A stretch of 64,000 nt of DNA from positions 310,001 to 374,000 of the forward strand of contig JAXQJY010000027.1 of assembly GCA_037042185.1 (NCBI GenBank), given 5' to 3'. Every line of letters begins with the position of its first letter. Position 1 is the stretch's first letter. This DNA is from Sordariomycetes sp. S80-01Y. Lineage: Eukaryota; Ascomycota; Sordariomycetes. Positions 21,516 through 62,651 of this stretch are shown in pieces. Position numbers and translations under genes: made by a program. Below the pieces are notes generated by a model. It was not told the origin of the DNA. It ran no database searches and was given only the letters and a program-made list of their open reading frames with translations.

Positions 21516-21536
21516 AGCAGCAGCAGCAGCAGCAGT
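21516..21536. repeat. (CAG)n microsatellite
   Basis: Six to seven CAG triplets in the likely leader of the SWIRM gene. Confidence 0.85.
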
Positions 21537-24723: not shown

Positions 24724-24752
24724 GGGAAGGGGGAAGGGGAAGGGGAAGGGGG
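24724..24752. repeat. (GGGGAA)n tract
   Basis: A purine-rich run of four near-identical GGGGAA units. It might form a G-quadruplex because G-runs of three or more are evenly spaced. Confidence 0.7.
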
Positions 24753-33087: not shown

Positions 33088-35780
33088 ATGGCCGGCGCAG
33101 AGCTCGAGGACGGCCAGCGCGCCCCCTCCCAGGGCGGCGTCATCGAGGGCTCCAACCCCTCCCGCTACAACCCCAAGGACCCTCTGACCCTCTTCATCAT
33201 CCAGGCCTGCCTCATCCTCATCCTCTGCCACCTTCTTCACTGGCCCCTCAAGAAGATCCGCCAGCCCCGCGTCATCGCAGAGGTCATTGGCGGCATCGTC
33301 CTCGGCCCCTCGGTCATGGGCCGCATCCCCAACTTCCGCGACTCCATCTTCCCCGAGGACTCCCTGCCCAACCTGACCCTCGTTGCCAACCTCGGCCTCG
33401 TGCTTTACCTCTTCCTCATCGGCCTCGAGACCGACGTGCGCTTCCTCGTTAGCAACTGGAGGATCGCCTCGGCCGTCGCCTTTGCCGGCCTGGCACTTCC
33501 CTTCGCCCTGGGCTGCGCCTTGGCCTGGGGCCTGTACAACGAGTTCCGCAACGACCCCGGCCTGGTGCACATTGACTTCAGCACCTACCTGCTCTTCATC
33601 GGCGTTGCCATTGCCATCACTGTGAGTCCCCTTGTCATGTTGCGCTGCGCCGTGGCATCTCGAGCTGCGGCGGAAAGGGGTGAGAAAAAGGGGCCGGGCT
33701 GACTCAGGCAACCGCAGGCCTTCCCTGTTCTCTGTCGTATCCTGACGGAGCTCAACCTCCTCAACACCACTGCCGGCATCATCACGCTGTCTGCGGGCGT
33801 TGCCAATGATGTGATCGGTGAGAAGCGGAAGCTCCCCTTTGAAAACCTTGTGCACTGCTGACGGCGTCGCCAGGCTGGATCCTCCTGGCCCTTTGTGTGA
33901 CGCTGGCCAACGCCGGAAACGGACTCTCATCCCTGTACATTCTGCTCGCTTGCTTTGCTTATCTTCTCTTCCTGCTCTACGGCGTCAAGCCCGTCCTGTA
34001 CTGGATTCTGAAGCGCTCCGGCAGCATCGAGCACGGCCCCTCCCAGGTCATGATTGCCCTCATCCTCCTCATCACCCTCGCCTCCGCCTTCTTCACGGCC
34101 ATCATCGGTGTCCACGCCATTTTCGGAGGCTTCATGGTGGGATTGATCGTTCCTCGTGACAAGGGCTTCGCCATCAAGGTCACCGAAAAGCTCGAAGATC
34201 TGATCGGTGCTATTTTCCTGCCACTTTACTTCACGCTGTCAGGTCTCAACACCGACCTCGGTCTTCTCAACGACGGCCTGACCTGGGGCTATGTTGTCGC
34301 CGTTACGCTGACCGCCTTCTTCTCCAAGATCATCGGCGCTACCCTGGCAGCGAGGCTCAGCGGCATCGTCTGGCGCGAGTCCCTGACCATCGGCGCCCTC
34401 ATGTCCTGCAAGGGTCTCGTCGAGCTCATCGTCCTCAACATCGGTCTTCAAGCCCGCATCCTCAGCACCAGGACCTTTACCATCTTCGTCGTCATGGCGC
34501 TCGTCACCACCTTCGTCACCACGCCGCTGGTATCCTTCCTGTACCCGCCCTCGTACCAGAAGAAGCTTGCCGCCTGGAAGCGTGGGGAGCTTACCTCGTG
34601 GGACTCGGACACGCCATCCGACGGCGCTGGAGCCATTGCCCAGCAGGACCTGCCCGCGAACAACAGAGTCCGTCAGCTGCTCGTCTACCTGCGCCTCGAC
34701 AACATGCCCAGCCTGCTCAACCTGGTGGCCCTCTTCGGCAAGGAATCCAGCCCCGAGGCCGGTGCCGCGTCCGACGAGAAGGGTGCTGCGGTTTTAGCTG
34801 CCGGCGCCGAAACTGCTCCGCCTCCCCGCGCGGTCAGGGCGCACGGTCTTCGTCTGTTGCAGCTTGGCGACCGTGACTCGTCCGTTATGACCGTGTCTGA
34901 AGTTGACGAAAATGCCAGCAGCGACCCCGTCGTCAATACATGGAGAACCGTCGGCCAAATCCTCAAGGTGGCCGTCTCGGGCGAGGTTGCCACCATGCCC
35001 GAGCACCGCTTCTCCGAGGCTCTTCTGGCTAAGTCTACCGATACCTCGTCCGACCTCATCCTTCTGCCGTGGAGCGGAGACGGCAATCTCGGCGACACCC
35101 AGAACGTGTCCGACAGCAGGATCGCCTCGTCTTACATCTCCTTCACCATGTCCCTGCTCTCCTCAGCCTCCCACAACCTGGCCATTCTCTTCCCCGCCGG
35201 GTCTCACTCCAAGGACGTCTCCCGCAAGCCTGCAAGTCTCAAGCTCCAGCGCACGCGGTCCTTCACCGACACCCACCGGGAGATCCAACCGCTGCCTGTC
35301 AAGAACAAGGCCCAGCGCGTTGTGCTGCCCTTCTTCGGCGGTGCGGATGACAAGCTCGCCCTTATGCTTGTTCTGCAGCTCTGCGAGCGGCAGGAGGTGA
35401 CCGCCTCCATCTTCCACCTCATGCCCGACGGCGCCGCGTCTTCGGAGGACAGGGAGTATCTCCTCAAGATCTCCAACGCTCTCCCCGCGCATGTCGCCGC
35501 TCGCGTCGAGTTCAAGTCGTGCCCCAGCAACGACGTTGCCGAGGAGCTCGTCGGGTCGGCCACGTCGTCGCTGCGCGAGGATTCGGGTGACGTAGCGTGG
35601 AACAACCTCGTCGTGCTCGGCCGTCGCAGCTCCAAGGGCAAGCTGGCCCACGGCATCAAGACCCTCGTCCATGCTTCGGACGAATTGGTCGAGTGCCTCG
35701 GCGACGCGGCTGGCGCGCTCATCGGCGTCGACCTCAAGGCTGACCTTTTGGTCGTGCAGGCTAGATCTTCTCGCACTTAG
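33088..35780 (+). CDS. Kha1-type K+/H+ antiporter (CPA2 family)
   Basis: Three exons (33088..33621, 33718..33817, 33874..35780) give 846 residues, as expected for fungal Kha1. About twelve membrane spans fill residues ~30-420. Conserved CPA2 features include [28 protein letters not shown] with the ion-binding acidic residue region, [24 protein letters not shown], and [10 protein letters not shown] ahead of [14 protein letters not shown]. The C-terminal ~400 residues are a cytosolic regulatory part with two universal-stress-like folds ([28 protein letters not shown]). It exchanges K+ (or Na+) for protons, probably in a Golgi or endosomal membrane, and affects alkaline pH tolerance in yeasts. 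Confidence 0.93.
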
Positions 35781-36455
35781 GTTGCATTTTCTCCGTCTTG
35801 GGAACATATCTTGGATATTCGGCACAAGGGTATGCGCTTCTTACATTTTGGGTTCGATGGCATTATCGGTGTTTCTCACGGGACGTTTTATGCTGTCAGT
35901 TGGTCATTTGTTGGATATTCTGTATTCCCGCCTACGGAAGAGCGTTGATCCCGGTCTTTTGAATATCATGACTATGTCAGGACCAGCCTATTCTCTCCAT
36001 TCGCCAGATGGCCACGGTGACTTGTAGACTCCAGTCTGGCTATTTGCACATTGTCTTCGTGGCACGCAATCGCCATCTTCAACGTGTGCCTTTGGAGGAC
36101 TCATGGACGTAGTGATCTGCGGCTCTTCTTGGCTGGGACCAGAAATAAGGTGTAAGTGAAAATGGTGAGAATGGTACTGAGAGAGGATAGATTAAACTAG
36201 ACAATTATTGTAATAACCCTAAAAACGCTAAAAATCAAATTGGTTGTATGTGGACTGGCCGCTGCTTGCTGGTCCTCGGCGGCTCGGATAGGGGGGTAGA
36301 CGCAGCCCCTGTCTCTCAAACCCCTTTATGGCTCCCCTTGCTCCAGACATGAAATTCAACGCACCCATGTTTACACTTTCAAATACGAACATCGATATCA
36401 CAGCCGCCACCCGAGAAGTGCGCACCATCTCGAACGCGACTGGGATTTGACCGCC
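35781..36455. other. Intergenic between convergent antiporter and SDR genes
   Basis: 3' flanks of both genes. Nothing coding or repetitive stands out. Confidence 0.55.
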
Positions 36456-41060: not shown

Positions 41061-42128
41061 CTAGCAGATGTTCCGTGCAGCATTGCCGGTGATGCCCCAG
41101 TAGATGTTATCGGCGCAGGGCGACTCACGAACTGGGGTGTTGTTCACCTCGAGCTCCATGAAAATGCCGCTCGTGTTGGGGAACTCGCTGCGTGCGGCAA
41201 CGCGAACCTCCCCTCCGCCGTTGACGACGCCGTCCCTGATGGCGAGGTTGTAGCAGTTCTCAATCAAGATGGCGTTATTCCCGTTGTTGGCTAGGTCGAT
41301 ATACTTGATCTCCGCGGCCCCGGACATGGACACGCAGAAGATGCCACGGCCGCCGCCTCGCGAGTAGACTCGGTCGACCCAGACGTTGGTGGTGGTGTAC
41401 TGGCCGTTGCTGAGCTGTCCGTTGTTGTTCGCAAATCGCAGAGTGGCGTAGCCCGTTCCGGCACCGACGTTGTTTCCTTCGACGTAGCCGACCCAGACGT
41501 TGGTAGACTTTTGCACAAGGAGCCCGCATTCGCCAACATCCCGGGCGATAACAGCGTCAATGTCCAGGCCGTCGATGTTCCAGACTTCAACCGCGTGGCT
41601 CCCCGCGCCGGTGACGGTGATTGTGCCCATTCTAGTGTTGTAGTTGAAAGCAGCATCACGGTCGAATCGGATGCCGAGACCACCGCTGAGGTTGAGCGTG
41701 ATCTGTCCCAGGTACAGGTTCCGCGTACCGGAGAAGCGCAGTCCAAAGTACGGGTTGCCGGTCATCTTCAGGTAAGGGATGCTGACGTCGTTCTGGCCAG
41801 TGACCTCTATCGCACCGCGGCCGGATCTGTTGCTCACATTCATGGTGCCGCAGACCTCGAATGTCTTGCCGCTGGTCACGGTGATGGTGGACGCGCCGAT
41901 GCTGCCGGAGGACCACACGACGACGCGCTGACCGGAGCCAATGCGGTCCAGGGCCGTCTGGATGGCAAGACGGTAGTCGGAGCCCGTGTAGACGTTGGCG
42001 CCGTTGACATTCGCGGTGAAGGTGCCGGAGCCAGTAACTACGCCTTGGGCCGAGCCATCACCGCAAGCTGCCAGGGCGGTGGTGATCAGCGAGAGCCCGA
42101 AGGCGAGGAAGCTCGAAGGGCGAACCAT
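41061..42128 (-). CDS. Secreted parallel beta-helix (pectin-lyase-fold) protein
   Basis: A single exon of 355 residues. Residues 1-20 are a clear signal peptide (LAFGLSLITTALA), with cleavage before ACGDG. The rest is a right-handed beta-helix with regular rungs such as GLRFSGTRNLYLGQITLNL, GIRFDRDAAFNYNTRMGTIT, AVEVWNIDGLDIDAVIARD, GRGIFCVSMSGAAEIKYIDL and AILIENCYNLAIRDGVVNGG. This is the pectate-lyase/GH28 type of fold. I see no clear polygalacturonase catalytic motif (NTD, DD), so lyase activity or a glycan-binding role is as likely. The even number of cysteines suggests extracellular disulfides. It is probably secreted and may act on plant or microbial polysaccharide. Confidence 0.85.
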   Translation of the reverse strand: MVRPSSFLAFGLSLITTALAACGDGSAQGVVTGSGTFTANVNGANVYTGSDYRLAIQTALDRIGSGQRVVVWSSGSIGASTITVTSGKTFEVCGTMNVSNRSGRGAIEVTGQNDVSIPYLKMTGNPYFGLRFSGTRNLYLGQITLNLSGGLGIRFDRDAAFNYNTRMGTITVTGAGSHAVEVWNIDGLDIDAVIARDVGECGLLVQKSTNVWVGYVEGNNVGAGTGYATLRFANNNGQLSNGQYTTTNVWVDRVYSRGGGRGIFCVSMSGAAEIKYIDLANNGNNAILIENCYNLAIRDGVVNGGGEVRVAARSEFPNTSGIFMELEVNNTPVRESPCADNIYWGITGNAARNIC

Positions 42129-43217
42129 GCTAATGATCGAAGACAGAGGTGCTCAACGGGTCGATTGGATAGTCTAATCAGCTATGCTCTAAATGCAGGA
42201 ATGCCAGTGTCAATCTTCACTTCTTATAAGACCGAGCTCGCTGTTCTTACCCCCGAGGGCCACTTAGCGCGTGCTGCTCACCCATCCCGGTGTTGTACAA
42301 GGCCAAGAAAGAGTCAGGGATTATCCACGAACTAGGAAAGTGGTGTGCTGTTGTTTTAAAGTTCGGTTGGTTCGGCAATTGCGTGAATCGTGCGGGTACG
42401 GGCTGCTAGTATGCGCCAAATCCAATATTGCGGAACGTGACTCTCCGGACATCAATCAGTTCTAGTATAAATTGGGTGCTCCCACCTCTCAATTAGCGAG
42501 TAGCCACGAGTGATAATACAGCAAACAAGTCCATCTCGGTCAGAAACCCCATCACGTAGTCATGTAGAGTGGCTTCAATCTCTGCTTGCGTAGCACCTGT
42601 TTCTACCTATCCAGCCAAGGGTCGGTAACCAAGTTCGGGGTCCCCTTGATGCAGATGACTCCAAGATAAGTTAGCCATTTCTGGGGTCAAAGCAGTTATA
42701 CATTAGGGTTGCAACATGTCGTTGCTCTTTTGTGCGCTAGCGTTCGTCGATCGGGTGAGCTGCTGCCGAGGTGGTCAGATGTTGGAAGCTATGTCCATAA
42801 ACGGGATACAACAACGAGGTTGAGCTGGGGAAAGAGGCAATGAAGAGGAACCCAACAGCTATTCTTCGCTCCCCGATACTTACAGAACTACCAGTCAGGC
42901 TCCTCGGAGTCTTTGTTGTCAAGGCTCGCTAGTCGCCACTCAGAGTAGTTAGCACAGGAGGTATCTGAATTGGGGTTTGTGACCTCCTCAACCGGAGCTT
43001 GATACACTTTCCGCGACAAACTACCGTACCTTTATGTCGTCTAATGTCAAGAAGGGGTCCGCCAGTGAGGTGCACATTAAGCGGATATATCGGAGATCTC
43101 GGGCTTAAGCACACCTCAGTGCCTAGTTGATTACATACAGGTGCGTGCTGACGCTGCAAACAAATCAACGCGTTGACTGCTCTGACGGGAAGCTGCTCTC
43201 TGTTCATCATCGCCATC
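42129..43217. other. Divergent intergenic region
   Basis: Promoters of the secreted protein (minus) and the regulator-like gene (plus). No credible gene. Small open frames here lack conserved features. Confidence 0.5.
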
Positions 43218-44699: not shown

Positions 44700-45776
44700 T
44701 CACCAAGAAAACTTCTGCCCAACCAACTTCTCCGACAGCGCCCACAGAGTGTCAGCGTTCTTGCTCGACACAGCCTCCGGTCTGGCCTTCTCGCTGATCT
44801 GGCAGTTCTCCAGGAAGACGCCATAATTCTCGAAGCCAGGCTTACTCTGAACCTTAAGCTTCGGATCCAGCGCCGCTACCAAACTGTTGGAGGCCCCCAT
44901 GCCGGTCGGCCTCAGCTTGAAGTGTCCCGCACTCACCGAGTTCTTGACAGCCTCCGCCATTGATTCAGGCCACACGCGCGACAGTTCAGTGTCGATAATG
45001 CCAGGATGCACTGCAATGGACAGAATCCCGTACTTCGCGTACAGTCGCTGCGTTGCACCGACGCTGAAGAGCACGTTGGCGACCTTGCTCCGGTTGTAAC
45101 CGTCGAGCGGGACATAGGCAGAGTCCATGATGTTGTTGTAGCCGAAGCGGGCGAACACCTCTTCCTGCGGCTTCTCGCAATCGGGCAGATCGCAGTTCTT
45201 GACTTCGAAGTTGATATCGCTGAACCGCGGACCGGAAACCGTGGGTGAGCCCGAGCTAACGTTCACGATGCGCGTGTCGCCCTGAGGGCTGTTCTGCGCG
45301 GCTTTGATCAGCTTTGGCATGATGAGGTTTGTGAGAAGCCAGTGTCCGATGTGGTTGGTGGCAAGGTGCAGCTCGATGCCCTCCTTGGTCAAGGTGCGCT
45401 CAGGGATGCCCATGACGCCCGCGCTGTTGACGACAATGTTGATGGCGGGGATGTCGTCCCAGGAGAGAAGCTCCTTGGCCGCGGCGCGGACGGACTCTTG
45501 GCTGGAAAGATCAACGCTGAGCGGCCAGTAGTCGACATTGGGGTAGTCGGCCTTGAGAGCGTCGACGACAGCCTGCATCTTGCTCGGGGTGCGGCCGCAG
45601 ATGATGAGATGGGCCGGGCCGCCAGAGGCGAAGGCCTGCGAGGTGGTGAAGCCGATGCCCTCGAGGTTGGCTCCGGTCACCAGGACAGTCTTGCCTTGGA
45701 TACGATGGGCGAAGTCCTTGGCCACTGTAAGGCCTAGGGTGTCAATGTCGTACTCGGGGTGGGTGGTGGATGTCAT
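44700..45776 (-). CDS. Short-chain dehydrogenase/reductase (retinol-dehydrogenase-like)
   Basis: A single exon of 358 residues. The cofactor site is VLVTGANLEGIGFTTSQ, a slightly unusual TGxxxxGIG spacing, followed by CGR (NADPH preference likely) and NSAGVMGIPE in place of NNAG. The catalytic Ser is in VNVSSGSP, and Tyr and Lys are in DGYNRSKVAN. The size and the long insert between them match fungal retinol-dehydrogenase/WWOX-like SDRs. Substrate unknown. It lies tail to tail with the regulator-like gene, with only 31 bp between the stop codons. Confidence 0.87.
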   Translation of the reverse strand: MTSTTHPEYDIDTLGLTVAKDFAHRIQGKTVLVTGANLEGIGFTTSQAFASGGPAHLIICGRTPSKMQAVVDALKADYPNVDYWPLSVDLSSQESVRAAAKELLSWDDIPAINIVVNSAGVMGIPERTLTKEGIELHLATNHIGHWLLTNLIMPKLIKAAQNSPQGDTRIVNVSSGSPTVSGPRFSDINFEVKNCDLPDCEKPQEEVFARFGYNNIMDSAYVPLDGYNRSKVANVLFSVGATQRLYAKYGILSIAVHPGIIDTELSRVWPESMAEAVKNSVSAGHFKLRPTGMGASNSLVAALDPKLKVQSKPGFENYGVFLENCQISEKARPEAVSSKNADTLWALSEKLVGQKFSW

Positions 45777-46368: not shown

Positions 46369-46917
46369 TCACAGTCTGTCTAGGCAGTCCCCCATGGACG
46401 TGTCCGAGAATGTACCAATCAACTGCACCGCCCCGTCGCCGACAGTGAGGCTCTTTGCCGTCCAGCGCTCCCCAGGCGACAATCTCAGTATTTGCCTACT
46501 GCGGTCGCCAACCGAAATGTGCTCGAACACATGTGTACGGCTGGTAGATCGCTCGTCAACGTGTTGAGATGGCGCCAGGAGGTCCAGGTCAGCGGTGTGT
46601 GATGCACTCGCCTGCCCGCCCGAGGGCGTGGATCTCAGGAGGGTTGGTAGATGGATTCCTCTCGCTATCTCGCTGCTCTCAAGACGAACGATCACATCGT
46701 AAACCTTGTTGCTGACTTTCTTCAATATGCCCAGAGTCATAAAACCGGCCATTGTGAGGTCGTCTTGCGCGGTGGTATCCAGGGCAGCGTCAGACGTGTG
46801 GCAGCTGGTGGTTGTGCTACCCTGCGGACTGAAGATGTTGGTAATGTGGTCCAGGATGTTGGTGCAGATGCCGAGGCAGGCTTCGGCGCCCGCGGACTCT
46901 CTCTGGAATTGATTCAT
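46369..46917 (-). CDS. Short paralogue of the neighbouring HeLo-like protein, motif C-terminal, HeLo-like part absent
   Basis: From the first in-frame ATG (MNQFQRESAG) the product is 182 residues. The frame stays open ~90 nt further upstream to a possible TTACCAG acceptor, so an unseen first exon is possible. Two stretches match the middle of the protein coded at 48144-49518: ESAGAEACLGIC against EISAEHCLQLC, and DDLTMAGFMTLGILKKVSNK against KEMTLAGMTTLSCLKACDLE. The C-terminal ~45 residues (FEHISVGDRSRQIL ... VGDGAVQLIGTFSD) carry the two-repeat module shared by three genes here. I found no HeLo-like exon upstream, so this is a shortened paralogue, either an adaptor-like product or a decaying copy. 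Confidence 0.6.
   Translation of the reverse strand: MNQFQRESAGAEACLGICTNILDHITNIFSPQGSTTTSCHTSDAALDTTAQDDLTMAGFMTLGILKKVSNKVYDVIVRLESSEIARGIHLPTLLRSTPSGGQASASHTADLDLLAPSQHVDERSTSRTHVFEHISVGDRSRQILRLSPGERWTAKSLTVGDGAVQLIGTFSDTSMGDCLDRL
46402..46533 (-). other. Two-repeat C-terminal motif, copy A
   Basis: A module within the 182-residue protein. Its two pseudo-repeats share the pattern G-x4-Q-hydrophobic. The first G and Q are at residues 137 and 142 and the second at 160 and 165, so the period is exactly 23. The core is VGDGAVQLIGT. Confidence 0.7.
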
Positions 46918-47646
46918 GACTTTCGCGTTCAAACCGAATTCAGTCAATGGATATTCCAATTCTTGCACTCCTTTGGTTCTGCGGCTGCTGGTAACGAAAT
47001 GTCGTAATGCTTCTCAACATTTCCACTCCGGAGTTTGGGAAGATTATTTAAACAACAAGCAACCGTACATGGACGCAATCGGACTTGTGCGTCCGTTAAT
47101 GGACCCTACCAGGCCAAGCTTATGAGCATCAGCTTGATCAGCCTCAGGTCTCTCAGGCCAGAAACAGCCGCAACGGCCAGAAACAGGCGAACAGACACAG
47201 CATCCATGCTTATGGAGCGGCTTGCGGCCAAAACCCGCCGCTTCGTCCATGTCTAACCCAGCTGTGGAGCCTCGTCCACTAAGGTCCTCCCCATGGCGCT
47301 TGCAAGGACGTATCAGATTGGTCAGCTCTGGACCCCAGATCCCACCCCCCGACCCTGTCGTGGCCGATTCCAGCCGTCCAGTTGCAGCCCGGCTGTCGTT
47401 CAGCGGTCGACTTCCATCCAGAACTAGACGATGGACGAGGCTTGTGTGGTGGGTTCTACAGCGGGGGCGCGGCGCGTAGCTCAACTCCCCACCTCCGGCA
47501 TCGTGATGGCATTTTCCCATTCTCATCCGGATTGACATGGCTTATTTATTTATTTGAACGAGCCACCCCAACACAACACTTTCTATTATCAAGAAGCGCT
47601 GCATACATCTCACTCACACTCTGATTGGCAGCTACCAGAACCAGCC
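46918..47646. other. Divergent intergenic region between two motif genes
   Basis: Promoter region of the flanking genes. I looked for a HeLo-like exon on the minus strand here and did not find one. A TTTATTTATTTG stretch lies at about 47,542-47,553. Confidence 0.5.
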
Positions 47647-48090
47647 ATGGACCCTCTGCCTTCTCGTAGCTCCCCGCACGAGCGCCGCGCAACTCCAGCA
47701 GACGACAACACCACCAACCCACCCGAGGCAGATTCGGGAGCAGGGGTCGCCCGACCAACGCATAGACTCAATAACATTCGGTGTGGCGGCAACGGAGTCC
47801 AGCTCTTGGTCTCTACGCGAGAACATCTATACGACGCCAATGAGGTGGAGGCAGGGGACGGCTCATGGCAGGTTGTCGGCGCCTGGTCCGACGAGTCTGC
47901 CCCAGAGCTCACCAGGATGCTCAGCCAACGCTCCTCCACGGGAGTAGGGGTGTCCAGCCAGATCAGCGGCAGTGCTCAACCGGCGACACGACCGCAGCCC
48001 TCTTCACGGGTCTCTCCGCAGGCACACTTTGACAGGGGAGGGCAGAGACTTGGGACACTTGCGGATCAGAGTGGGAATGTCTCAACTTGA
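47647..48090 (+). CDS. Small protein built around the two-repeat motif
   Basis: A single exon of 147 residues from ATG at 47647. The first ~38 residues are polar and disordered (PSRSSPHERRATPADDN). Residues 39-82 carry the shared module: RLNNIRCGGNGVQLLVST, then EAGDGSWQVVGAWSDES. G47/Q52 and G70/Q75 are spaced 23 apart exactly as in the two neighbouring genes. The tail is Ser/Gln-rich and ends with a motif-like RGGQRLGTLADQSG. There is no HeLo-like or nucleotide-binding domain. It runs tail to tail with the HeLo-like gene, 53 bp between stop codons. If the module polymerises, this could be a motif-only partner or modulator of the neighbouring effector-like protein; that is inference. Confidence 0.65.
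   Translation: MDPLPSRSSPHERRATPADDNTTNPPEADSGAGVARPTHRLNNIRCGGNGVQLLVSTREHLYDANEVEAGDGSWQVVGAWSDESAPELTRMLSQRSSTGVGVSSQISGSAQPATRPQPSSRVSPQAHFDRGGQRLGTLADQSGNVST
47761..47892 (+). other. Two-repeat motif, copy B
   Basis: The module of the 147-residue protein, residues 39-82. Both halves match G-x4-Q-hydrophobic, 23 residues apart, with core AGDGSWQVVGA. Confidence 0.7.
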
Positions 48091-48143
48091 TGGGATGGGG
48101 CCCTGCATGATTGATGATTTCGTTTGTTGGTAGCAATGTTCAA

Positions 48144-49518
48144 TCAGCCTCTGCTGGCACTGCTGGCGTGTAATTGCTCATGTAGCTCTTCTTTCCCTTC
48201 ACTCTTCTCAACCTCGTGGCTGACAAGCCCCTGTCGTTGGTTTGCGTGAAGCATGGTGATCTCTTGCAAATGTTCCGGGGCCAGAGAGCCGAAGAACTGA
48301 AATGCCCCGTCTCCCGCGTGAGCCTTGTTGACCTTGAAGAGGTCCCCAACGGTAGAGACGCAGATCTGTTGTCCATTGGCTCCGACGCTAACGTCCTCCA
48401 CAACATGGACTCGCTCTGGGGTAGCCCGGGACGACGCTTCCTTGCAGAAATGAAGAAGCTCCTTGACGCTGACCAGCTCGTGCTCAATCCCCTGAACCTC
48501 CCCCGCCTGACCCTCAGCTCCTACGTTTGCCAGGTCCCCAAAGTCCATGGACTGATGCTGCCCCTGGTGGGTCGGAGATGCCTCCTCGAGTACCCTGCTT
48601 TGGGCTGTTGTCGCTTGCTTACTTAGCTTGCTAATAGCATGGGACATTTCCAAGTCACAAGCCTTCAGGCAGGAAAGGGTCGTCATGCCCGCCAGTGTCA
48701 TCTCTTTAGTCGATAACGTGCTAATAGCGCCCGTCGTGTCCGTCGCACCGACATTGTGACTTCTCAGGGCAAGGTGGAACTGCGCCTGGTCAAAATCGCT
48801 CTGGAACCGGCGGCAAAGCTGCAAACAGTGCTCCGCGCTGATTTCCTCTTCGCGCATCTGCTCTAGGTAGGCTGTTAGGTGATCGGTCTCTTGCTGCTGC
48901 TGCTGCTGACCGCTGGCTGGAGGCGCCCGAAGCCCCTCGGACCGGGCCTGGACGTCTTCGAAGTGCTGCTGCACAAGCCGTGTTGTCGCGTCCAACTCGC
49001 TCTTGTAGTCGTTCAGAACTCTGAGCGTGACTTGCGATGTACGCCTGCGAACGCATGTGTTAGCCATGTACCACTGCTGACACTGCATTGGGGCATTCAA
49101 GTACATACAGGTTGGCATCAGCGATAGCAATTGCCATTGTGGACTTGTACATAGCCAGTGTGTCCGTTAAATCAACAATGTCGCCAAGCCTGAACCTGAA
49201 AGACATCCACTTGAATACCCTCTTCCCACCACTTAGAGTCGGCCGGTGAAACTCTAGAATCACTCTGAATTGATTGCATGTTGCTTCACATTCCTTGAGA
49301 GGACTTTCGAGAGGGGTTCCCACGTTTTCATCCTGCTCGCAAAGCTCCCGCAACGACGAAAGAATCTTTTTAAGGCTGAGGATCTGGTTGAGAAGGTCGT
49401 GCACTCTTTTTGGGTAGGTCTTGAAACTTTCGATCGTGTCGTATAAGGCCACCGACGACTGTATCGTGGCTGTGATGACGGCGATGATCCCCGCGGCGAC
49501 GCTGAGGGGATCAGCCAT
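48144..49518 (-). CDS. HeLo-like N-terminal domain protein with C-terminal two-repeat motif
   Basis: Two exons (49109..49518 and 48144..49044; GTATGT donor, TTCGCAG acceptor, GCTAACA branch) give 436 residues. The N-terminus (MADPLSVAAGIIAVITATIQ, VALYDTIESFKTYPKRV, LLNQILSLKKILSSL) is the four-helix 'fungal N-terminal domain of STAND proteins' (Helo_like_N, formerly PigL_N). Related HeLo/HELL domains permeabilise membranes in fungal programmed cell death. A six-Gln run at about residue 183-188 and helical segments follow. Residues ~350-393 hold the module: VEDVSVGANGQQICVSTVGD, then HAGDGAFQFFGSLAP. G358/Q363 and G381/Q386 are 23 apart. An N-terminal HeLo-like domain plus a C-terminal two-repeat motif is the layout of HET-S and HELLF. 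Amyloid behaviour is inference. Confidence 0.75.
48276..48407 (-). other. Two-repeat motif, copy C
   Basis: Residues ~350-393 of the HeLo-like protein. Two halves with the G-x4-Q-hydrophobic pattern lie 23 residues apart. The core AGDGAFQFFGS aligns without gaps to the copies at 46402-46533 and 47761-47892. Confidence 0.7.
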
Positions 49519-50034: not shown

Positions 50035-51885
50035 CTAGAGCAAGTAGCGGAAACTCTTAATCTCAAGGTCTGTCTGATGCAACGCCTGCGCGCTCTCCTC
50101 TGCCGCATCTGATGGCGTCGGCACTCCATACACCTTGTCACGACGGCGATTTTCCACAACATAGTAGACGAGAAGACAAATCAGGAAGAAAACAGCCAGC
50201 GCAAGCCCCGAGACCGCCATGGTGATACCAGTCTGGAATCATATCAGAACCTCTCTTTTCTCAAGCAATTTAACCATGTGAACTTACTGGGTAATGGGGA
50301 GCCTCGCTCGCCAGGAAGAATTGCGGTCCCACAATGTTCCCTACGCAGTACGCTACGAAGAGCAGAGCTCCGGTGACGCTGCGCTTCGTGAAGCCCGCGA
50401 CGTTGGACGAGATGACGCTCAACGAGAGTGGAATGTTGACCGCGAAGACGGCCCCGAGGGCCAGACCCAAGAGTCGTTCCGTTCTATCGTCCATTCCAAG
50501 CTTCCACACAAGTGCCATGCCGACGAGCGACACCACCGTATTCAGGATCATCATGGCGATACGAGTTCGAGGGACAAAGGTTGCGACGGTGGCTGTGATG
50601 AGGAGGAAGACGATCTGCGCGGCGCCGAGGGGCATCTGGAGCAGGAGAGACTGCAGCTGCGTGAACCCAAAACTGTTGATCAGGATATTCGAGAACTTTA
50701 GTGGTCAGCATATCCGTGTTCCAGAATCACAGGGTCGATGGCTTACGCTAGTGATCCCACCGTTGCAGAGATTCACGCAGAATGTATACAGGACCAGGAA
50801 CCACGTCTGCGGATCGCGAAGACACAACCAGACCTGCTCCCAGTGGAATTTGCCCGTGTCTGTCCCACCGGGTTGGTTCTGGCACGTACGCTGCAGGGCG
50901 ATGAGGCGCTCCCTCTCCGTCAGGAAGATGGCGTTCTTCGGTGTATCGGGGAGCAAGACGGCGAGGAACAGGCCGATGCCTGCCGTGATGGCGCCGAGGA
51001 CTAGAAAGAGGAGCTGCCAGCTGTTGACGGTGTCATTGTCGACGGTACCGATGCCCCACGCCACGACGCCGCCAATGACGGTGGCGATGCAGTTGCCAAA
51101 GAACCAGGCGGATTGCCTGGGTCAGCATCGTCAGTGCCTCGCGCCCGATGATGGCTAGAAGGAAAGTTCACTTACCGAGCCGGCTGCTCCTCGCGCTTGT
51201 AGAACATGCCGGTGATCAGCGAGAATCCAGGCGCAATGGCAGCTTCGCCCACGCCTAGGAAGAAGCGGGCTGCCATAATACCGGCAAAGCTTTTTGCTGC
51301 GGCGTGGCACATCAAGACACCGCCCCAGATGAGTCTAATTACAGTCAGTGGCTTGCAAAGAGTAATACAAGGGGGCTGCACAGACACCATGACAGTCAGG
51401 TACTTGCCAAGTGGCAAGCGAACGGCTAAGTACGAGCTGATGGGACTCCAAGCGAGGTAGCCAAAGTAGAAGACGGCTGAAGCCCAACTGTACTGCTGTC
51501 CCTGGAGATTCTGATGACTTTTAGCTTCCAGCTTCTCGCGTTCAATCACTGCAGTGCGAGAAGGGGCAACGTACCAGATCCTCCCTCAGGTTGAACATGG
51601 TTGCTTGGCTCAGGGCCAACTTGTCCATGAACTGCATCATATAACATACTCCCATCAACGGAATCATTCTGCCATGCGCAGTCAGTCACCAAGGACTTGA
51701 ATCAAGTATGGCAATACTCACATCAGGTCCAGCTTCAGAACAACTCTCTTCTCTTCCTCGGGCGTTGCGTAGCCCTGGAGCATCTCCCCGACACCGACAT
51801 CACGCATCGATGTGTCTTGTGCCTCTGACTTCATATCGTCATATTTGAAAGTCTCAGAATGTCTTTCGGCGGATTGACGCTCCAT
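50035..51885 (-). CDS. Dal5-type (anion:cation symporter family) MFS transporter
   Basis: Seven exons (51722..51885, 51575..51668, 51404..51510, 51176..51334, 50747..51116, 50288..50695, 50035..50232) give 499 residues. The exon 3/4 junction (GTACCT donor) is the least certain. Twelve spans are expected. Family marks are MMQFMDKLALSQATMFNLREDL, YFGYLAWSPISSYLAVRLP, MAARFFLGVGEAAIAPGFSLITGMFYKREEQPAR and a C-terminal ENRRRDKVYG. Dal5-type carriers import organic anions such as allantoate, ureidosuccinate, dipeptides or vitamins. A divergent M20 amidohydrolase gene 0.9 kb away suggests import of an amide or acyl-amino-acid that is then hydrolysed. Confidence 0.9.
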
Positions 51886-52787: not shown

Positions 52788-54260
52788 ATGATGAATCAGA
52801 AAGCCATTCCAGCCAGTCTAGACGAAGTGAAGTCGTCTATCGACAGCACTCTCGCCGCTGCTCATGCGGCGCTTCGCGAACTGAACCACGAGGTATCGCA
52901 TCCGTCTACGATCCCTTTCCAGGTTGCTCTAACACTCTCGCGCCCAGATCTGGTCCAACCCTGAGTTAGCCTACGAGGAGCACAAGGCTCACGATACGAT
53001 CTGCAACTTTCTCGAACGGCAAGGCATCGCCGTCACTCGCCACGCATACGGACTCGAGACCTCCTTTGAAGCAACGAGCGGCAGCGATGGCCACCTAATC
53101 AGCTTCAATGCGGAGTATGATGCGCTGCCGGGGATCGGACATGCATGCGGTCATAACCTGATCACTACAAGTAGCATGGCCGCGTTTCTGGCACTGTCTG
53201 AGCTCCTGAAGAAGTTCAACATCCCCGGTCGCGCCCGATTGCTGGGGACACCGGCCGAGGAGAACGGCGGTGGCAAGGCCAAGCTAATCGATGCTGGTGC
53301 CTACAAAGAGGTAGATGTCATGCTGATGGCGTAAGTACATTCACAGAGGAAAATCTGCTTGCGCTTGCGCTGACAGCCTCTAGACATCCCGGTCCCAAGG
53401 CCATATTCCCCGGGGTCCAATGCGACGGTGTCGGCGGGCTGTTAATGAACGCCCGCAAGCTCATCCGCTGCGAATTCTCGGGGAAGAGCGCGCATGCAGG
53501 AGGAAACCCCTGGGCGGGCATAAACGCGCTGGACGCTCTCGTTGCTACGTACAACAACGTCTCAATGCTCCGACAACAGCTGAGGCCAGATGAAAGGATC
53601 CACTGCGCCTTTCTCGACACGCCAAAGGTGGCCAACGTCATTGCCTCGTACACGAAGGCGTACTGGCAGGTCAGAGCTCCGAATCTGGAAGATCTCAGGG
53701 ATTTGGTTGTTCGCGTACGAAGGTGCATCGAAGCCGGAGCGCTGGCTACGGGATGCGAGGTGAAGCTTGAAGAGTAAGGCCGACGCTTTGGACATGGAGT
53801 GACACATCTCGGAGCTTCAGACTGACGATCGACAGAGACGAACTTTACGCCGATATTCGGTTGAACGACACACTCTGTGACCGTTACCAGGCTCACATGG
53901 GGCAATTCAGTCGCCACGTGCTCAAAAGCCACGACAAGGTCCTGACTGGTTCGACTGACGCTGGTGAGTGCAACCAAATACGGACTAGAACAACCAATAC
54001 TGACGTCTGCGTACCCAGGCAATGTGAGCTACGTGGTACCGACGCTGCACACGATGTTCTCCATCCCTGGCCCCGACGGCTCATTCCCTCATCATCCATC
54101 ATTTGCGAGTGCCGCGTCTACTGATGAAGCTCACGAGGAGGCTGTGATCGTAGGCAAGTCGCTCGCTTTGGTTGGCTGGGACATGCTCGCAGACGAAAGC
54201 CTCTTCGCGACAGCTAAGAGGCAGTGGGAGGACGACGTTGCCGGGGAGGTTCCTACGTAG
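52788..54260 (+). CDS. M20-family amidohydrolase (PM20D2-like)
   Basis: Five exons (52788..52892, 52948..53330, 53384..53773, 53836..53963, 54019..54260) give 415 residues. It is an M20/M28-type metallo-amidohydrolase. The metal site segments are SFNAEYDALPGIGHACGHN and LGTPAEENGGGKAKL, followed by the dimerisation-domain HPGPK and CEFSGKSAHAGGNPWAGINA. The best-known relatives (PM20D2, AbgA/AmhX type) cleave amide bonds of unusual dipeptides or N-acyl amino acids in the cytosol. No signal peptide. It is divergent from a Dal5-type importer and shares a promoter with it. A second ATG at 52791 is possible and of no consequence. Confidence 0.9.
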
Positions 54261-54875
54261 GCGTTGAGGTGTCAAACGGAGCTTCAATGAATGTTGCTTC
54301 CATATAGCATTCTCGGGTTCTTCTTTTCCGGGAACCAGCTCCGCCAGTGATGATTCGCATCACCCCCTCGCGCGTTTCCTCCCTCGGCGGGGCTCGCATA
54401 TGGATCTGCATGTGAAGCGCGTCTTGTGACGCTGGAGCTGGAATGGACGGACGCGGCCGACTCCGGACAGCGCGATAAGGTAACTATATCAGTCCTTCGA
54501 AAGCGGATGGTTGCATCAGGCTGGTGAAGTGTTTTTTCGAGATTTTGGTGACGCGTATGCAGAACAAAGTTTAAATACGAATTCAGGTGGGCCTCGACGT
54601 CTCACACGAATATAAATCCAGCATAGCTTCGTTTCTCACTGCGCTGCCCTGACGCTTTTTTTTTTCTCTTCTCGAAGAAGGAAAAAGCAAATCGAGCGTA
54701 TTCCCTGGCACCAAGCTCAGTTCCTCCACAAACCAACGTGCCAATCAGCTACATGAACCAGTGAAACGACACACGTCCTTGTTCTATTCTATTTACTGGT
54801 ACTACGAATCACGGTTGACGCAAAAGCAAACACAGCTGTGAGGCAGTCAAGGATAATATTCTGCATACGCAGTCC
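54261..54875. other. Intergenic upstream of the ankyrin gene
   Basis: This holds the 3' flank of the M20 gene and the promoter of the ankyrin gene. A T11 run lies at ~54,656 followed by a CT-rich stretch. No gene is seen. Confidence 0.5.
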
Positions 54876-55898
54876 ATGCGACGACTAGCACAGAGGATGT
54901 TATCAGGTCGTGGAGACAAGGCTCGTGAGCTTCGCCGGGCCGCAGAAAAAGGGCATCTAGACGCATTGAGAAATCTTCTCGAAGAAGGAGTGGATATCTC
55001 AGCTGCGGACGGCAGGGGACGGAAGCCCCTTTACCTGGCGGCGCGGTATGGCCATGTTGAGGCCGTCAAGCTGCTTCTCGACAGGGGCGCGGACGCCAAT
55101 GATGCCCCAGAAGGACCTTCGCCAATCGACGCGGCTGCGGGAGACAGGCAGCAGCAACTCACGAACTTGTATTACGACGAAGATATCGAGGACAATCCCG
55201 CCATGAGTGGAATTACTGCTGCGTGTGTCGCTGCTATGGAAGGGCATGTGGAAGTGGTCGAACTGCTTGTAGAGCGGGGGGCGGACATGGAGACGACAGA
55301 CTATTTGGATAGAACGCCTTTCTACTTGGCGATTGAGCGTGGGCATGTAGACGTTGCGAGGCTGCTCGCAGACCGAGGGCAGGATATCAACACCATCTAT
55401 CCGAACTCATATACCCCTCTGCTTATGGCATGTCAAGGAGGACACCTCGAACTAGTAGAGCTGCTCGTTGAGCGCGGAGCCATCATCGACCACTCATCCA
55501 AACACGGCTTTACGGCTCTATCCGTGGCTGCTCAGTACGGGTATGCGGAAATTGTAAGGTTCCTGGCTGAGAGGGGGGCAAACATTGAGAAGTTGAATCG
55601 TGACGGGCAAACACCTCTCTTCGAAGCAGCATCGCGAGGGAATATAGAAACAGCGCAGGCGCTCATCGACCGAGGAGCGAATGTGAACATACAGCCGGAT
55701 CATGGATTCACGCTTCTCCATTTGGCTGCTATCAATGGGGATTTGGAATTGGTGAGGATGCTTGTAGATAGGGGAGCTATCCTCGACACATCTACCAGCA
55801 CCGGAGACACCCCCCTCCGGCTAGCCTCACAATCCGGACACACAGAGGTCGTCGATTTTCTCAAAGATAGAGGAGCTACGGTCGAAGTACCGATGTAG
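54876..55898 (+). CDS. Ankyrin-repeat protein
   Basis: A single exon of 340 residues. About nine ankyrin repeats fill nearly the whole chain (for example GRKPLYLAARYGHVEAVKLL, LDRTPFYLAIERGHVDVARL, GFTALSVAAQYGYAEIVRFL and GDTPLRLASQSGHTEVVDFL). The second is followed by an insert containing DRQQQLTNLYYDEDIEDNP. There is no other domain or membrane span. Such proteins serve as protein-binding scaffolds. The N-terminal 30 residues are basic. Function not predictable. Confidence 0.92.
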   Translation: MRRLAQRMLSGRGDKARELRRAAEKGHLDALRNLLEEGVDISAADGRGRKPLYLAARYGHVEAVKLLLDRGADANDAPEGPSPIDAAAGDRQQQLTNLYYDEDIEDNPAMSGITAACVAAMEGHVEVVELLVERGADMETTDYLDRTPFYLAIERGHVDVARLLADRGQDINTIYPNSYTPLLMACQGGHLELVELLVERGAIIDHSSKHGFTALSVAAQYGYAEIVRFLAERGANIEKLNRDGQTPLFEAASRGNIETAQALIDRGANVNIQPDHGFTLLHLAAINGDLELVRMLVDRGAILDTSTSTGDTPLRLASQSGHTEVVDFLKDRGATVEVPM

Positions 55899-58645: not shown

Positions 58646-60970
58646 TCAGTCTGAAAAAAAAATGGAAGGACCGGATTGAGAGATATCGTCAACTCACCTT
58701 TGTTGTCCCTCCTCCACTGCTCGCACAATTCAAGGCCCTGCTTGAGCGCTGTCACTTCCGCGGTCAATTGCGCGCGAGACTCGTGTACGTCTTCAGACTC
58801 CTCGGCCAACCATTCAAGCTGCTCCTTACTCAGGTCCATGAGCTTATCCGTCTGGAAAACCTCGGGTAGCTGAGTGATGAGCTGATTCTCAATCAACAAG
58901 ATGATGACATTGGTCATGAAAGTTTCAATCGTCATCTAGAGACAAAAAGGAGAACAGTTAGCTCAGACCACCTTAGATCTGCGCGTACCCCTAGCTTCAC
59001 CTATATGAGGAACTCACCCTGTAGTACACTACCATATAATCCAGAACGGTCTCGATTCCCCATTCCTGAGGCGTCCCGTTCATAACATTTATCGCGTTCT
59101 GGGCAAACGATTTGTTTTTCAGTGCTCCGTCGAATTGCTCAGAGAATGGTTGGACTGCCTCTTCCTTCTTCATGCTCTCGAATTGCCTGTGGAAACGCTG
59201 ACGAAGTCGGTCCTTTACTCGGTCCTCAAATGTCTCTTCCAAAGCCAGAGGGAACCCAGTATCCGGGAACTGTGGGAGGATCTCTTGCAGCCTTTTCAGC
59301 AAAGTCACTTTTCTTTCCTTAAAGAAAGGGTCGATAAATTTCCTCATGATCTTGTCGCGAATGTCTTCGTCTCCTTCCGTGACATGCTGAAGTATTTCCG
59401 TGATTAGGAACTCCGATGCCTCTATCGCCAGCTCTACGTGACGAGTCGCGAGACCTTCCCACGGCTTTGCCTGGTCCTCGAAAAACACCATTGCCAACTT
59501 GCTGGGATAGACTCCTGGAAGCTCGGTGCCTTGGCATTTGGTCGCATAGTCGGTAATCAACTGCTCGAACTCCTGCTGGGAAACATAGATGGGATCTGCT
59601 GCACCGTAACGTGCTGCAAGGCCCATCAACTCGGGGGGAATATTCATTGCAACCCAATCAAGCTCGTCCCGCGGATCACGCCACTGAATGACTCGTTTGG
59701 ATCCGCACTTCAGAAACACGGCGGTGAAAGCACGGTTGAGGTTGCGGACATATGCGCGCAGATTACGGCGTTCATCAACTGTGACTGGCTCAGGCCCGGG
59801 AGAGATATCGCCAAAAAAGCTAGTGTCCTTTTCCCCGCCGCCAACGGCCTGCTCCGCCAGTTGAGTAAAGCTTTTCGCGATGCCATGGATATGTCGCATG
59901 TGTTGCGCGGGCGTCTCCCGCGGATCACCAAGGGCCGCAAGCGAGCGTTGCCGGTCATCGATTAACTGTTCAATGCGTGTCGTGACTTTCGGGAGCTTCT
60001 CAGCAATGTGCGTTAGAAGCATCTTGCTCAGCTTCTCTCGGAGGGTTGCGATGCCTTTGTCTTTCTTCGGGATCTCGGACCACGGGCGGGAGCAAAAGAG
60101 CTTAGCCTCCGTCCGATCCCTCTCATCAAAATCGACTGTGTCACCTCCAGCCCGGTTGCGAAGGACATGCCACCCGTGCTTCATGAAATGCGGGGAGTTC
60201 TTGACGTTCGCAAGGAGCTCGATAAACGGTCCTTCTTCGCCTCGCTCCACCCTATCAGGCTTGGTGATAATTCCGAGCGTACGCTGGCCGTGTTCATCAT
60301 ATCTTTTCGTCTCGTCGAGGATTGTCTGCAGGACAGAGGAAACGCCTGCCGAAATGACTGCGAGAATGATGCTTCCCTCCTGTTTCATGTACTCAGCTGC
60401 CAACTCATTGACAACAGTTCGATACTTGGCTGGTTGATTCACACCACTGGAGTGATAGAATCCTGGCAGGTCAACCAGGGTCAGCTGGGGGACCGCAGGC
60501 CCAGAGATCTTGACGCGGAGAACATGTCTTGAGAAGGGGTTGCCGCGCCCGTCGATGCCCATATGTTCAGTTGCCTCTTTGACGATGCTCGACAGGTCGC
60601 ACAGCTCAGTTTGTTTCCGGTTAAACTCTGAAAGTTTGTTTTTTACTGCTTCCGACTCGCTTTCGTGAGGCTTGATCGTGACCTCCATCGAGGTCTCATC
60701 CGCCTCGCGGAGGATTAACTCGGTTGCAAAGCGTGTGCAGAGCTCGTGCTTCGACGGGAAACGCACCCGAGAGATGGACTCCAGCACTGAGCTCTTGCCA
60801 GAGGACTGGTCGCCAACGACGATGATCTGTGGGAGCTCCACATACTTGCCAATGTCGTTGTCGCGTAGCTTGTCGATGGTGTCGAGCAGCTGCTTGTGCT
60901 TGGTCTGTAGGTTCTGCAGGTCTGGGGTGTCAAGCCCCGCGGCGAATGATTTCACGTCTTCCTTTTTCAT
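58646..60970 (-). CDS. Mx/dynamin-like GTPase
   Basis: Exons 59018..60970, 58698..58935 and a 5-nt last exon 58646..58650 give 731 residues. GTPase motifs are GDQSSGKS (residues 53-60), DLPG (167-170) and TKPD (236-239). A middle/stalk region and a C-terminal GTPase effector domain (MTIETFMTNVIILLIENQLI, start of exon 2) follow. There is no PH or proline-rich domain, so it resembles the fungal Mx-like dynamins rather than Vps1 or Dnm1. Such proteins form helical polymers on membranes; the target organelle is unknown. The start is ATG in MKKEDVKSF; an upstream reading frame adds only a Leu run. The terminal exon has a strong T9CAG acceptor and supplies the last codons (D, stop). If intron 58651..58697 is retained the tail would be 42 residues longer. 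Confidence 0.9.
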
Positions 60971-62651
60971 GGTGATAAGGCAGCGCAAGAGTAGTAATAA
61001 CAATGATGGCTAATTTACTTGCTCTGGCGCGAGAGAGCGTCGGGGTTTTTAAAGTCACAGCCGTTGTTGGTTGACGATCCGTTCGGCCACTCGAACAAGG
61101 GTGCAAGACTCCTGCATCTCGGGAGATACGTCTCGCAAGCAGGCTCGGTCCCCTTGCGCCATCTTCTCCCCGTTCTTGTCCTTTCTGTGAGATGCATGAT
61201 GCTTCACCTGCAACGGGGAGCTCAGCCTACATGCGGAGTATGGCTCCTTAGTTGGTTGCCTTGTTTCAACTTGCAGCTCAGAGGATGGCTGCATCCAGGG
61301 TGCCACACTGTCACACGTGGTTGAGCCAACTGAGACCCGCAAAAGTTGCCACGCGGGATGCTCCGATTAGTGGCCATTGCAAGGGTTCGAGACGCATCCC
61401 CGGCACGGGGCGGGTGATGACGATCAACCGGCGCTGGGCGCTGGGCAAGTGATTCCCTCGCAAGGCTGAGACGCGATAAAAATTAGCCATGTATCTGACG
61501 TTCGGTCTGACCACAAGGTAGACGGAAGGGCCACATACGGGATAGAGCATACTGATCACCACGCTGCTGTGGTTCGCGGTCAAGAGCGTGTTGAGTCGCA
61601 ACACCGTAGCCACGTATAATAATCATCGCATAACTGTACTGTAATAGCCGAGGCGTGATATAAATGAGGACCTGAAAAGATTCATATATTAACTGCGTTT
61701 GTTTTAGGTCCATGGTAACTTGAAGCAGTGTGGCAGACGAGTACGCCTAGATCGCGTTGGTCCGCACATCTTACACATATCTTACAAACCCTGGCACACC
61801 CTGTTGGCGGCTGTACCGTTGTTTGCTCCGGATGCGGCAAATCACCCGTGTATGTGTGCGTACACTTAAAGACCCGCGCTGTTTGCTGTCGCTGTTATCT
61901 TGCACCCAGACCTGAGTACGAGGTGTGTTGAGGCAAGTTGGCCAGTAAAAGCAACGTTTCTAAGTTTAGACTATCCGAGCACCTGGACTGTTGGTATTAT
62001 GACTATCTGAGACGATGGAATAAGGCTCAACGAAAGGCAATCGCCGAGACTAAATCAACGCTAAGATATCCACGGAAGACCTGAGGACGATCAATTCAAG
62101 CAATGCTTGTGGAGCAAGACCGCAAGATCTACGGCAACAAGCAGTGAGCTTGAGCAGTACTTGAAGATAGGCCCGCATCAAATGATTCGATCGAGCGGTG
62201 GATAGCGCACCGGAGCTCTTGACATAGAATTTGATTTGGTTGAGTTGAGGGCGGCGGTGCCAGCCAGTACAACCCAACAACCCACCTATCGACTACCGAG
62301 ACTGCGCAATTTAGGGGCCTACAACTCTATTAAATATAAATGTCTTATGTATATAACCGCCTCAGTGCCTAGTTCCCCCAAGCGCAGCCCAGAAGAAATG
62401 GCAAAAAAACATACAACAGCCGGTATTCGCTGGTCGTCACCGACCCAACTACTAATCAGCCCCTCAGCGGCTTGACTATGGGAGAGCGGACGGGATCCCG
62501 TATTTTCCACTGGGTATGGTCGTATGTGCAAGATAAGCGACTGAAAATAATACATATCCTAAAGATTGGAGAACCTCTAACAATAAACAATTCGTGCGCT
62601 GATATCACATGCTGTGATCCACGGCGCTAGGATCCACATCCTGAAGGCGCT
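60971..62651. other. 1.7-kb gap without a recognisable gene
   Basis: Upstream of the dynamin-like gene and 3' of the FAD oxidoreductase. Small open frames exist on both strands but none shows a domain. The sequence from 61,600 is AT-richer. No transposon ends, tRNA or repeats were recognised. Confidence 0.45.

What the first reader, a model, noticed from the sequence alone, without database searches (positions are those of the whole stretch)
46369..49518. Three adjacent genes share a two-repeat C-terminal module; one carries a HeLo-like domain: candidate amyloid-signalling cell-death locus
Seen: proteins at 46369-46917, 47647-48090 and 48144-49518 each carry a ~45-residue module that aligns without gaps. 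Each module contains two pseudo-repeats of the form G-x4-Q-hydrophobic, spaced exactly 23 residues in all three (core GDG[AS][FVW]Q[FLV][FIV]G). Known: HET-S, HELLP and HELLF pair an N-terminal HeLo/HELL domain with a C-terminal amyloid motif, and HET-s and HELLF have two pseudo-repeats of ~21-23 residues forming a beta-solenoid. Inference: this may be a member of that class with a different motif. The x-Q-x-x-G core also recalls, loosely, the RHIM core. The other two genes would be motif-bearing partners or decayed copies.
Basis: partly seen in the sequence, partly recalled or inferred. Interest (0 to 1): 0.85.

Follow-up and report, generated by a model that had tools for sequence, protein, structure and literature searches.

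The report
Fungal death-domain gene with shared repeat tail
In an unnamed fungus, three neighbouring genes share a short two-repeat protein tail, and one of them also has a domain of a family known to kill fungal cells; the tail looks like, but is not shown to be, a protein-templating switch, and the usual partner receptor gene was not found nearby.

Summary
Three proteins (A 46369-46917 -, B 47647-48090 +, C 48144-49518 - with one inferred intron) share a gapless 50-residue module of two pseudo-repeats 23 residues apart; kinship and period exceed chance. C begins with a full PF17111 domain (PigL_N, called Helo_like_N/HeLo-like in the amyloid-signalling literature). A also shares C's middle region but lacks PF17111; B shares only the module. 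Divergence at silent sites is high, so the copies are old.

The repeats fit the published HET-s-related amyloid motif (HRAM) layout (hydrophobic 5, 8, 10, 18; Q at 16 as in HRAM5), and one low-confidence AlphaFold model gives three short strands per repeat. But repeat 1 lacks the otherwise invariant Gly19, the linker is 2 residues, C is 436 aa, a helix is predicted right after the module, and no NLR was found among 40 window ORFs scanned. It is not RHIM/PP. Fungal proteomes could not be searched. I read it as a HeLo-like protein with a beta-solenoid-type homotypic module of no known class and two effector-less partners; amyloid behaviour is unproven, and an ordinary folded domain is about as likely.

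The parts
49109..49518 (-). Gene C exon 1 (MADPLSV...ADAN): start of PF17111 HeLo-like/PigL_N domain; most hydrophobic 19-residue stretch of C is residues 7-25
49045..49108 (-). Gene C intron, 64 bp, GTATGT...CGCAG (an 88-bp alternative to 49021 is also open)
   Evidence: inferred from frame; no transcript evidence
48144..49044 (-). Gene C exon 2: end of PF17111, middle region, module, 37-residue tail, stop
48810..49515 (-). PF17111 domain of C, residues 2-215 (span includes the intron; coordinates worked out by hand)
   Evidence: 7.8e-48; curated cut-off 27.2 bits, score 163.1
48615..48866 (-). Middle region of C (about residues 197-280) that A shares; no Pfam family there above its cut-off apart from the end of PF17111; limits approximate
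48258..48407 (-). Module of C (residues 350-399): repeat 1 48339-48407, repeat 2 48270-48338, then 4 more columns
46369..46917 (-). Gene A, 182 aa from the ATG at 46917: middle region plus module, no PF17111
46681..46917 (-). Middle region of A shared with C; limits approximate
46384..46533 (-). Module of A
47647..48090 (+). Gene B, 147 aa: module flanked by sequence rich in Ser, Pro and Gln by eye; no Pfam family
47761..47910 (+). Module of B

Best explanation
A small, old family of fungal paralogs built round one homotypic-interaction module. The module is most likely a compact two-rung beta-solenoid: each 23-residue pseudo-repeat makes one rung (short strands at HRAM positions about 2-5, 8-10 and 16-20, polar arch at 6-7, Gly-rich arch at 11-13, Gln at 16), and rungs of different molecules stack. 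In C the stack would gather or unmask the N-terminal HeLo-like domain, which attacks membranes as in HELLP/HELLF; A and B, which carry the module without that domain, would seed, spread or block the stack. Shown: shared module, 23-residue period, PF17111 in C and no match to it in A and B. Inferred from sequence pattern and low-confidence models: solenoid rungs. Inferred from family knowledge only: stacking, membrane attack, cell death, regulation by A and B. Whether the assembly is amyloid or a finite folded oligomer is open.
For: PF17111 over the full profile, E 7.8e-48, plus a sub-threshold match to SesA (E 3e-4, 21.4 bits, cut-off 26.3). Hydrophobic extreme N-terminus, in line with the membrane-targeting N-terminal helix of HeLo/HELL proteins (PMC12881547, passages). 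Module in three linked genes with three different contexts, kept despite high silent divergence. HRAM features from PMC4518210 (sections read): 37 of 48 feature-cells met, 0 of 5000 joint column permutations reach that (mean 21.7, max 34); 0 of 7021 windows of 18 other window ORFs reach 12 of 16 at spacing 23, while C, A and B score 12, 13 and 12; with any spacing 23-39, 9 of 6733 do. AlphaFold on B: three strands per repeat at the HRAM strand places, repeated at about 23; on C: long-short-long-short strands with the same period. Aggregation hot spots of five or more residues fall on the second Gln core in all three and beside or on the first in C and B.
Against: All 12 Foldseek hits are non-significant (E 2.2 or more). 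Repeat 1 lacks Gly19 in all three. Both models put a helix right after repeat 2, which could cap a solenoid and prevent stacking. Charge complementarity not distinctive. Hot spots also lie outside the cores (three in C, two in A, one in B). C as a single sequence does not show the period. A search of C against solved structures found no HeLo or MLKL chain (three chance-level hits, E 0.31 or more), so 'HeLo-like' rests on Pfam and the literature; I did no fold test of that domain. No NLR found. No fungal relatives could be searched.
Confidence: 0.4

Rival explanations
1. The module is a stably folded, non-amyloid C-terminal domain common to a subset of fungal PF17111 proteins (two beta repeats capped by a helix) that mediates ordinary dimerisation or partner binding; A and B are plain paralogs that lost the N-terminal domain.
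For: Helix predicted directly after repeat 2 in both models; continuous long strands joined by short Gly-rich turns in model 1 would suit hairpins; A and C share a second region besides the module, as whole-protein paralogs would; no NLR found among the ORFs scanned. I recall, from no call, that similar C-terminal segments are frequent in fungal proteins with this N-terminal domain.
Against: The i, i+3, i+5 hydrophobic spacing in all six repeats breaks simple strand alternation and fits an arch better; B shares only the module with the others; no known fold or family matched convincingly.
Confidence: 0.4
2. A and B are decayed remnants of local duplications of C without function.
For: A lacks the N-terminal domain and tblastn of C shows no PF17111-like piece between A and B; B is short. 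No transcript evidence for either.
Against: Silent divergence is high (dS 1.18 for C-B, 1.54 for A-B, not computable for C-A) while eight columns are invariant and both frames stay open; dN/dS about 0.49 (C-B) and 0.56 (A-B) on 50 codons, rough values. B lies on the opposite strand.
Confidence: 0.12
3. A genuine sixth HRAM subfamily whose NLR partner lies elsewhere in the genome.
For: Gln16 as in HRAM5 and the HRAM hydrophobic pattern; amyloid signalling between non-adjacent genes is suspected (PMC9815663 section 24); the 2015 survey excluded proteins over 310 aa and the 2022 paired search asked for an NLR within 20 kb, so C could have been missed.
Against: Gly19 missing in repeat 1; loop of 2 residues where 154 of 155 HRAM pairs had 6-18; no single-repeat copy elsewhere in the window; right flank of C covers only about 14.5 kb.
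Confidence: 0.2

Closest known systems
HELLF (Podospora anserina), HeLo-like + HRAM5 prion-forming domain, beside NLR fnt1
   Same: HeLo-like N-terminus; two C-terminal pseudo-repeats; HRAM5 hallmark Gln at repeat position 16; hydrophobic 5/8/10/18
   Different: HELLF is 277 aa with an adjacent NLR (PMC7889193, passages); C is 436 aa with about 134 residues between domain and module, 23-residue repeat step, no NLR seen, two extra module-bearing genes. No HELLF sequence was compared directly.
HET-S/HET-s and NWD2
   Same: Effector domain plus two-repeat C-terminal module; a related protein without active effector is conceivable (A, B)
   Different: HeLo (PF14479) not PF17111; 21-residue repeats joined by a 15-residue loop (PMC5485727, passages); the module hits no HET-s chain by sequence; the HET-s amyloid is fifth of six Foldseek hits for the B model, but at E 9.0, probability 0.01, and is not among the six for the C model
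PP/RHIM motif (HELLP, RIPK1/3)
   Same: Conserved Gln in a hydrophobic core
   Different: PP and RHIM share GxQxG (PMC5485727, passages); here Gly follows Q by three in repeat 2 and is absent in repeat 1, so the spacing fails
PUASM
   Same: Gly-rich core with Q-x-x-G (FxGxGxQxxGxGxF; PMC9815663 section 24)
   Different: One residue more between GxG and Q here; PUASM is associated uniquely with PNP_UDP effectors
MrPigL of the Monascus azaphilone locus
   Same: Pfam's present name for PF17111 refers to PigL
   Different: [quoted passage not shown] C has no ankyrin match, so no pigment link follows

Membership tests
HeLo-like effector (PF17111) | Profile match above the curated cut-off over the whole domain | tested here: met
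   C: 163.1 bits against 27.2, profile 1-209/209; A and B: no match
HeLo-like effector (PF17111) | Four-helix HeLo/MLKL-type fold | not tested
HeLo-like effector (PF17111) | Membrane-targeting, cell-killing activity | not testable with these tools
   Only a hydrophobic N-terminal stretch was seen
HET-s-related amyloid motif (HRAM) | Hydrophobic at 5, 8, 10, 18 and hydrophobic or Gln at 16 in both repeats | tested here: met
   All six repeats (Ala, Cys, Trp and Tyr counted as hydrophobic)
HET-s-related amyloid motif (HRAM) | Perfectly conserved Gly at 19 in both repeats | tested here: not met
   Present in repeat 2 of all three, absent in repeat 1 of all three
HET-s-related amyloid motif (HRAM) | N/Q/H at 3 and R/K preference at 15 | tested here: not met
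   His3 in 3 of 6 repeats (all repeat 1), R/K15 in 1 of 6
HET-s-related amyloid motif (HRAM) | Inter-repeat loop of 6-18 residues | tested here: not met
   Period 23 leaves 2 residues; 1 of 155 published pairs also had 2
HET-s-related amyloid motif (HRAM) | Charge complementarity between stacked positions | tested here: not met
   4 opposite and 3 like pairs at offset 23; for example 4 and 1 at 21, 3 and 0 at 26; three sequences only
NLR-coupled amyloid signalling pair | NLR with the motif at its N-terminus, usually an adjacent gene | tested here: inconclusive
   None in 40 ORF stretches by Pfam, no NLR-type P-loop by three patterns, no extra motif copy; right flank only 14.5 kb, genome not held
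PP/RHIM | GxQxG core | tested here: not met
   None of the six repeats has GxQxG; repeat 2 has Q-x-x-G (read from the alignment)
Amyloid | Self-templating cross-beta fibrils | not testable with these tools
   Hot spots only (scale values recalled)

The most novel reading that the evidence does not exclude
A further class of fungal signalling amyloid: a compact 23-residue-step solenoid carried by long HeLo-like proteins that published surveys left out (over 310 aa, or no NLR within 20 kb), working without an adjacent NLR and tuned by effector-less module proteins that act as seeds or decoys.
Probability: 0.2. Interest if true: 0.75.

Novelty: new variant of a known kind. Interest (0 to 1): 0.5.

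Why it matters
If the module assembles, it adds a motif class to fungal regulated cell death, and the three-gene arrangement (effector plus two genes with the module but no effector) makes a testable set for seeding versus blocking without an NLR. It also points to a gap in past searches: long HeLo-like proteins and those without NLR neighbours. If it is merely a folded tail of PF17111 proteins, it is still a shared module that matches no Pfam family.

Tried and rejected
RHIM/PP: rejected on core spacing. Module profile against the PDB: 29 sequences at E 0.024-0.99, 28 of them Fyn or Src SH3 chains and one a VP2 protein, over 19-32 of 50 columns; rejected as chance. Single-repeat profile against the PDB: only a viscotoxin (0.32) and uroporphyrinogen decarboxylase (3), rejected. 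Protein C against the PDB: three hits at E 0.31-1.6, rejected. Pfam on the three modules alone: nothing at E up to 10, though filters drop most matches above 0.1. Other Pfam matches of C (SesA, Med9, TraF_2, DHC_N1) are below their cut-offs. Prokaryote genomes: module profile, 72 pattern matches, none confirmed; protein C, 10 pattern matches, 2 loci, of which I read one (L001) as arginyl-tRNA synthetase of a Clostridia MAG sharing a short peptide (the name is my reading, no family search; L002 was not read). Viral contigs: 46 pattern matches, none confirmed. Plasmids: no match for module or C. NCBIfam: only a sub-threshold chance match. Foldseek: model 1, six hits, the first three (an Suf-type complex, an adhesin domain, a tapirin domain) beta-helix proteins as I recall; model 2, six hits including LpxD (beta-helix, recalled) and the HET-s amyloid; none significant. 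Charge complementarity: not distinctive. Pigment-cluster link through the name PigL: rejected. The ankyrin ORF at 54819-55895 as an NLR: no NACHT/NB-ARC in the ORFs scanned upstream, which are an M20 peptidase.

Caveats on the HRAM test: features were taken from paper text, the register was fitted after seeing the sequence (13 offsets were allowed in the permutations), Ala/Cys/Trp/Tyr counted as hydrophobic, column permutation also destroys ordinary strand alternation, and the 18 background ORFs were picked by me from the 30 (12 left out); some are stop-to-stop ORFs that may include non-coding ends.

Papers: sections read in PMC4518210 (3 part 1, 8, 11, 18) and PMC9815663 (also outline and passages); passages only in PMC5485727, PMC12881547, PMC12261475, PMC7889193, PMC4986451, PMC8241920, PMC10512319, PMC8905617; all others were seen as search listings. 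No supplementary file was seen.
Full report
What is there. The window is fungal-type DNA: an intron-containing gene and fungal families (Zn2Cys6 transcription factor, fungal rhodopsin), and no whole genome is held for it. Gene C (minus strand, 49518-48144) needs one intron; of two open candidates I used the 64-bp one (49108-49045), giving 436 residues. Its first half is PF17111 over the whole profile (163.1 bits, E 7.8e-48, residues 2-215), named PigL_N in the Pfam copy used here and Helo_like_N / HeLo-like in PMC9815663 (passages). Gene A (46369-46917, minus; scanned with an upstream extension) and gene B (47647-48090, plus) match no Pfam family at E up to 1.

The shared module. The three modules align without a gap over 50 columns with eight invariant positions. 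They are related (0 of 500 shuffles for each pair; profile scores 98.5-102 bits, though the three built the profile, next window ORF 5.9 bits). tblastn shows that A is related to C from C residue 197 through the module (24% identity, E 2e-8) and B only round the module (36%, E 5e-7). No PF17111-like piece was found between A and B. Protein identity between modules is 28-36%; dS is 1.18 (C-B), 1.54 (A-B) and not computable (C-A), on 50 codons. So these look like old paralogs whose frames and key positions have been kept, not fresh decay. B lies on the other strand from A and C.

The period. Comparing the module profile with itself gives 15.8 at offset 23 and at most 6.9 elsewhere between 8 and 35; 0 of 1000 column permutations equal this at 23 and 2 of 1000 at any offset from 15 to 31. 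Single sequences differ: strong in A and B, not in C.

Fit to HET-s-related motifs. PMC4518210 (abstract and sections 3 part 1, 8, 11, 18 read) gives: hydrophobic at 5, 8, 10, 16, 18; Gly at 19 perfectly conserved; N, Q or H at 3 by subfamily; R/K preferred at 15; Gln at 16 in HRAM5; loops of 6-18 residues in 154 of 155. With module column 1 as position 3, all six repeats here are hydrophobic at 5, 8, 10 and 18 and have Gln at 16; His fills position 3 in the three first repeats; Gly19 is in the three second repeats and missing in the three first; R/K15 is met once. Total 37 of 48; permutations reach at most 34 of 48 in 5000 trials. Background: 0 of 7021 windows from 18 other window ORFs reach 12 of 16 at spacing 23; 9 of 6733 do if any spacing from 23 to 39 is allowed. 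This says the repeat is built like an HRAM rung; it does not prove kinship, since other beta-solenoid rungs could score as well. Charge pairing between stacked positions, a mark of HRAMs, is not distinctive here.

Structure. Two AlphaFold runs used only the three window sequences. With C first: mean pLDDT 69.8, pTM 0.45, strands 11-20, 25-30, 34-43, 48-53, helix 56-68. With B first: pLDDT 60.9, pTM 0.32, strands 10-13, 16-18, 25-28, then 33-36, 39-41, 47-50, helix 56-70. The second equals HRAM positions about 2-5, 8-10 and 16-20 in each repeat. Both have the 23-residue repetition; they disagree on whether the first two strands are one. Foldseek found nothing significant (best E 2.2 and 4.1). 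That several of those non-hits are beta-helix proteins (recalled), and one is the HET-s amyloid (E 9.0, B model only), is a hint only. The helix after repeat 2 is a point for a folded, capped domain and against open-ended stacking. The HeLo-like domain itself was not modelled.

Surroundings. Pfam scans of 40 long ORF stretches (30 at E up to 0.001, 10 at E up to 0.01) found transporters, dehydrogenases, hydrolases, an M20 peptidase, transcription-factor pieces, a dynamin-like GTPase and an ankyrin-repeat protein, but no NACHT, NB-ARC, WD40, TPR, HET or patatin domain. The window has 193 stop-to-stop ORFs of at least 110 aa, so most short ones were not scanned, and apart from C no gene was spliced. 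The only match to three P-loop patterns in ORFs of 60 aa or more is the dynamin's. No further copy of the module or single repeat was found. The window reaches 46 kb to the left of A but only about 14.5 kb to the right of C, less than the 20 kb used in PMC9815663 (section 55).

Why surveys could have missed it. The 2015 survey kept only proteins up to 310 aa and their last 80 residues; C is 436 aa and its module ends 37 residues before the C-terminus. The 2022 paired search required an NLR within 20 kb, although its strain-level search with NLR-derived motifs did not. I did not see their data files, so whether the module is in them is unknown. Searches of the paper library listed nothing whose title or abstract start names such a module; this is not proof that it is unpublished.

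Verdict. Observation confirmed; PF17111 (HeLo-like) assignment confirmed by profile; amyloid class unproven. That it works like an HRAM-type switch is a fair hypothesis; that it is an HRAM is not supported, because Gly19 in repeat 1, the loop and the charge pairing fail. The main rival, a folded C-terminal domain of PF17111 proteins, is about equally likely, and one fungal proteome search plus one fibril assay would go far to separate them.

Noticed in passing
54876-55898 (+): Ankyrin-repeat ORF of about 340 aa from its first ATG, with many repeats (Ank_4 E 6.6e-71), about 5 kb from gene C; no NLR domain in the ORFs scanned beside it.
   Followed up: partly
59000-61009 (-): Dynamin-like GTPase (Dynamin_N E 6.7e-30), the only P-loop pattern hit in window ORFs of 60 aa or more.
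   Followed up: no
52933-53774 (+): M20-type peptidase exons between the transporter and the ankyrin gene.
   Followed up: partly
50270-51549 (-): Likely MFS transporter exons next to gene C (two pieces match MFS_1 at E 2e-6 and 4e-6, below the curated cut-off); with the short-chain dehydrogenase at 44703-45776 it frames the three-gene locus.
   Followed up: no
41064-42152 (-): ORF with a weak, sub-threshold right-handed beta-helix match (PF13229, E 3.6e-4) overlapping a long ORF on the other strand.
   Followed up: no
18001-36000: Stretch of higher GC (0.58-0.63) than the rest of the window (0.50-0.58), with strong local GC-skew swings; includes a SWIRM-domain ORF at 22029-23735.
   Followed up: no
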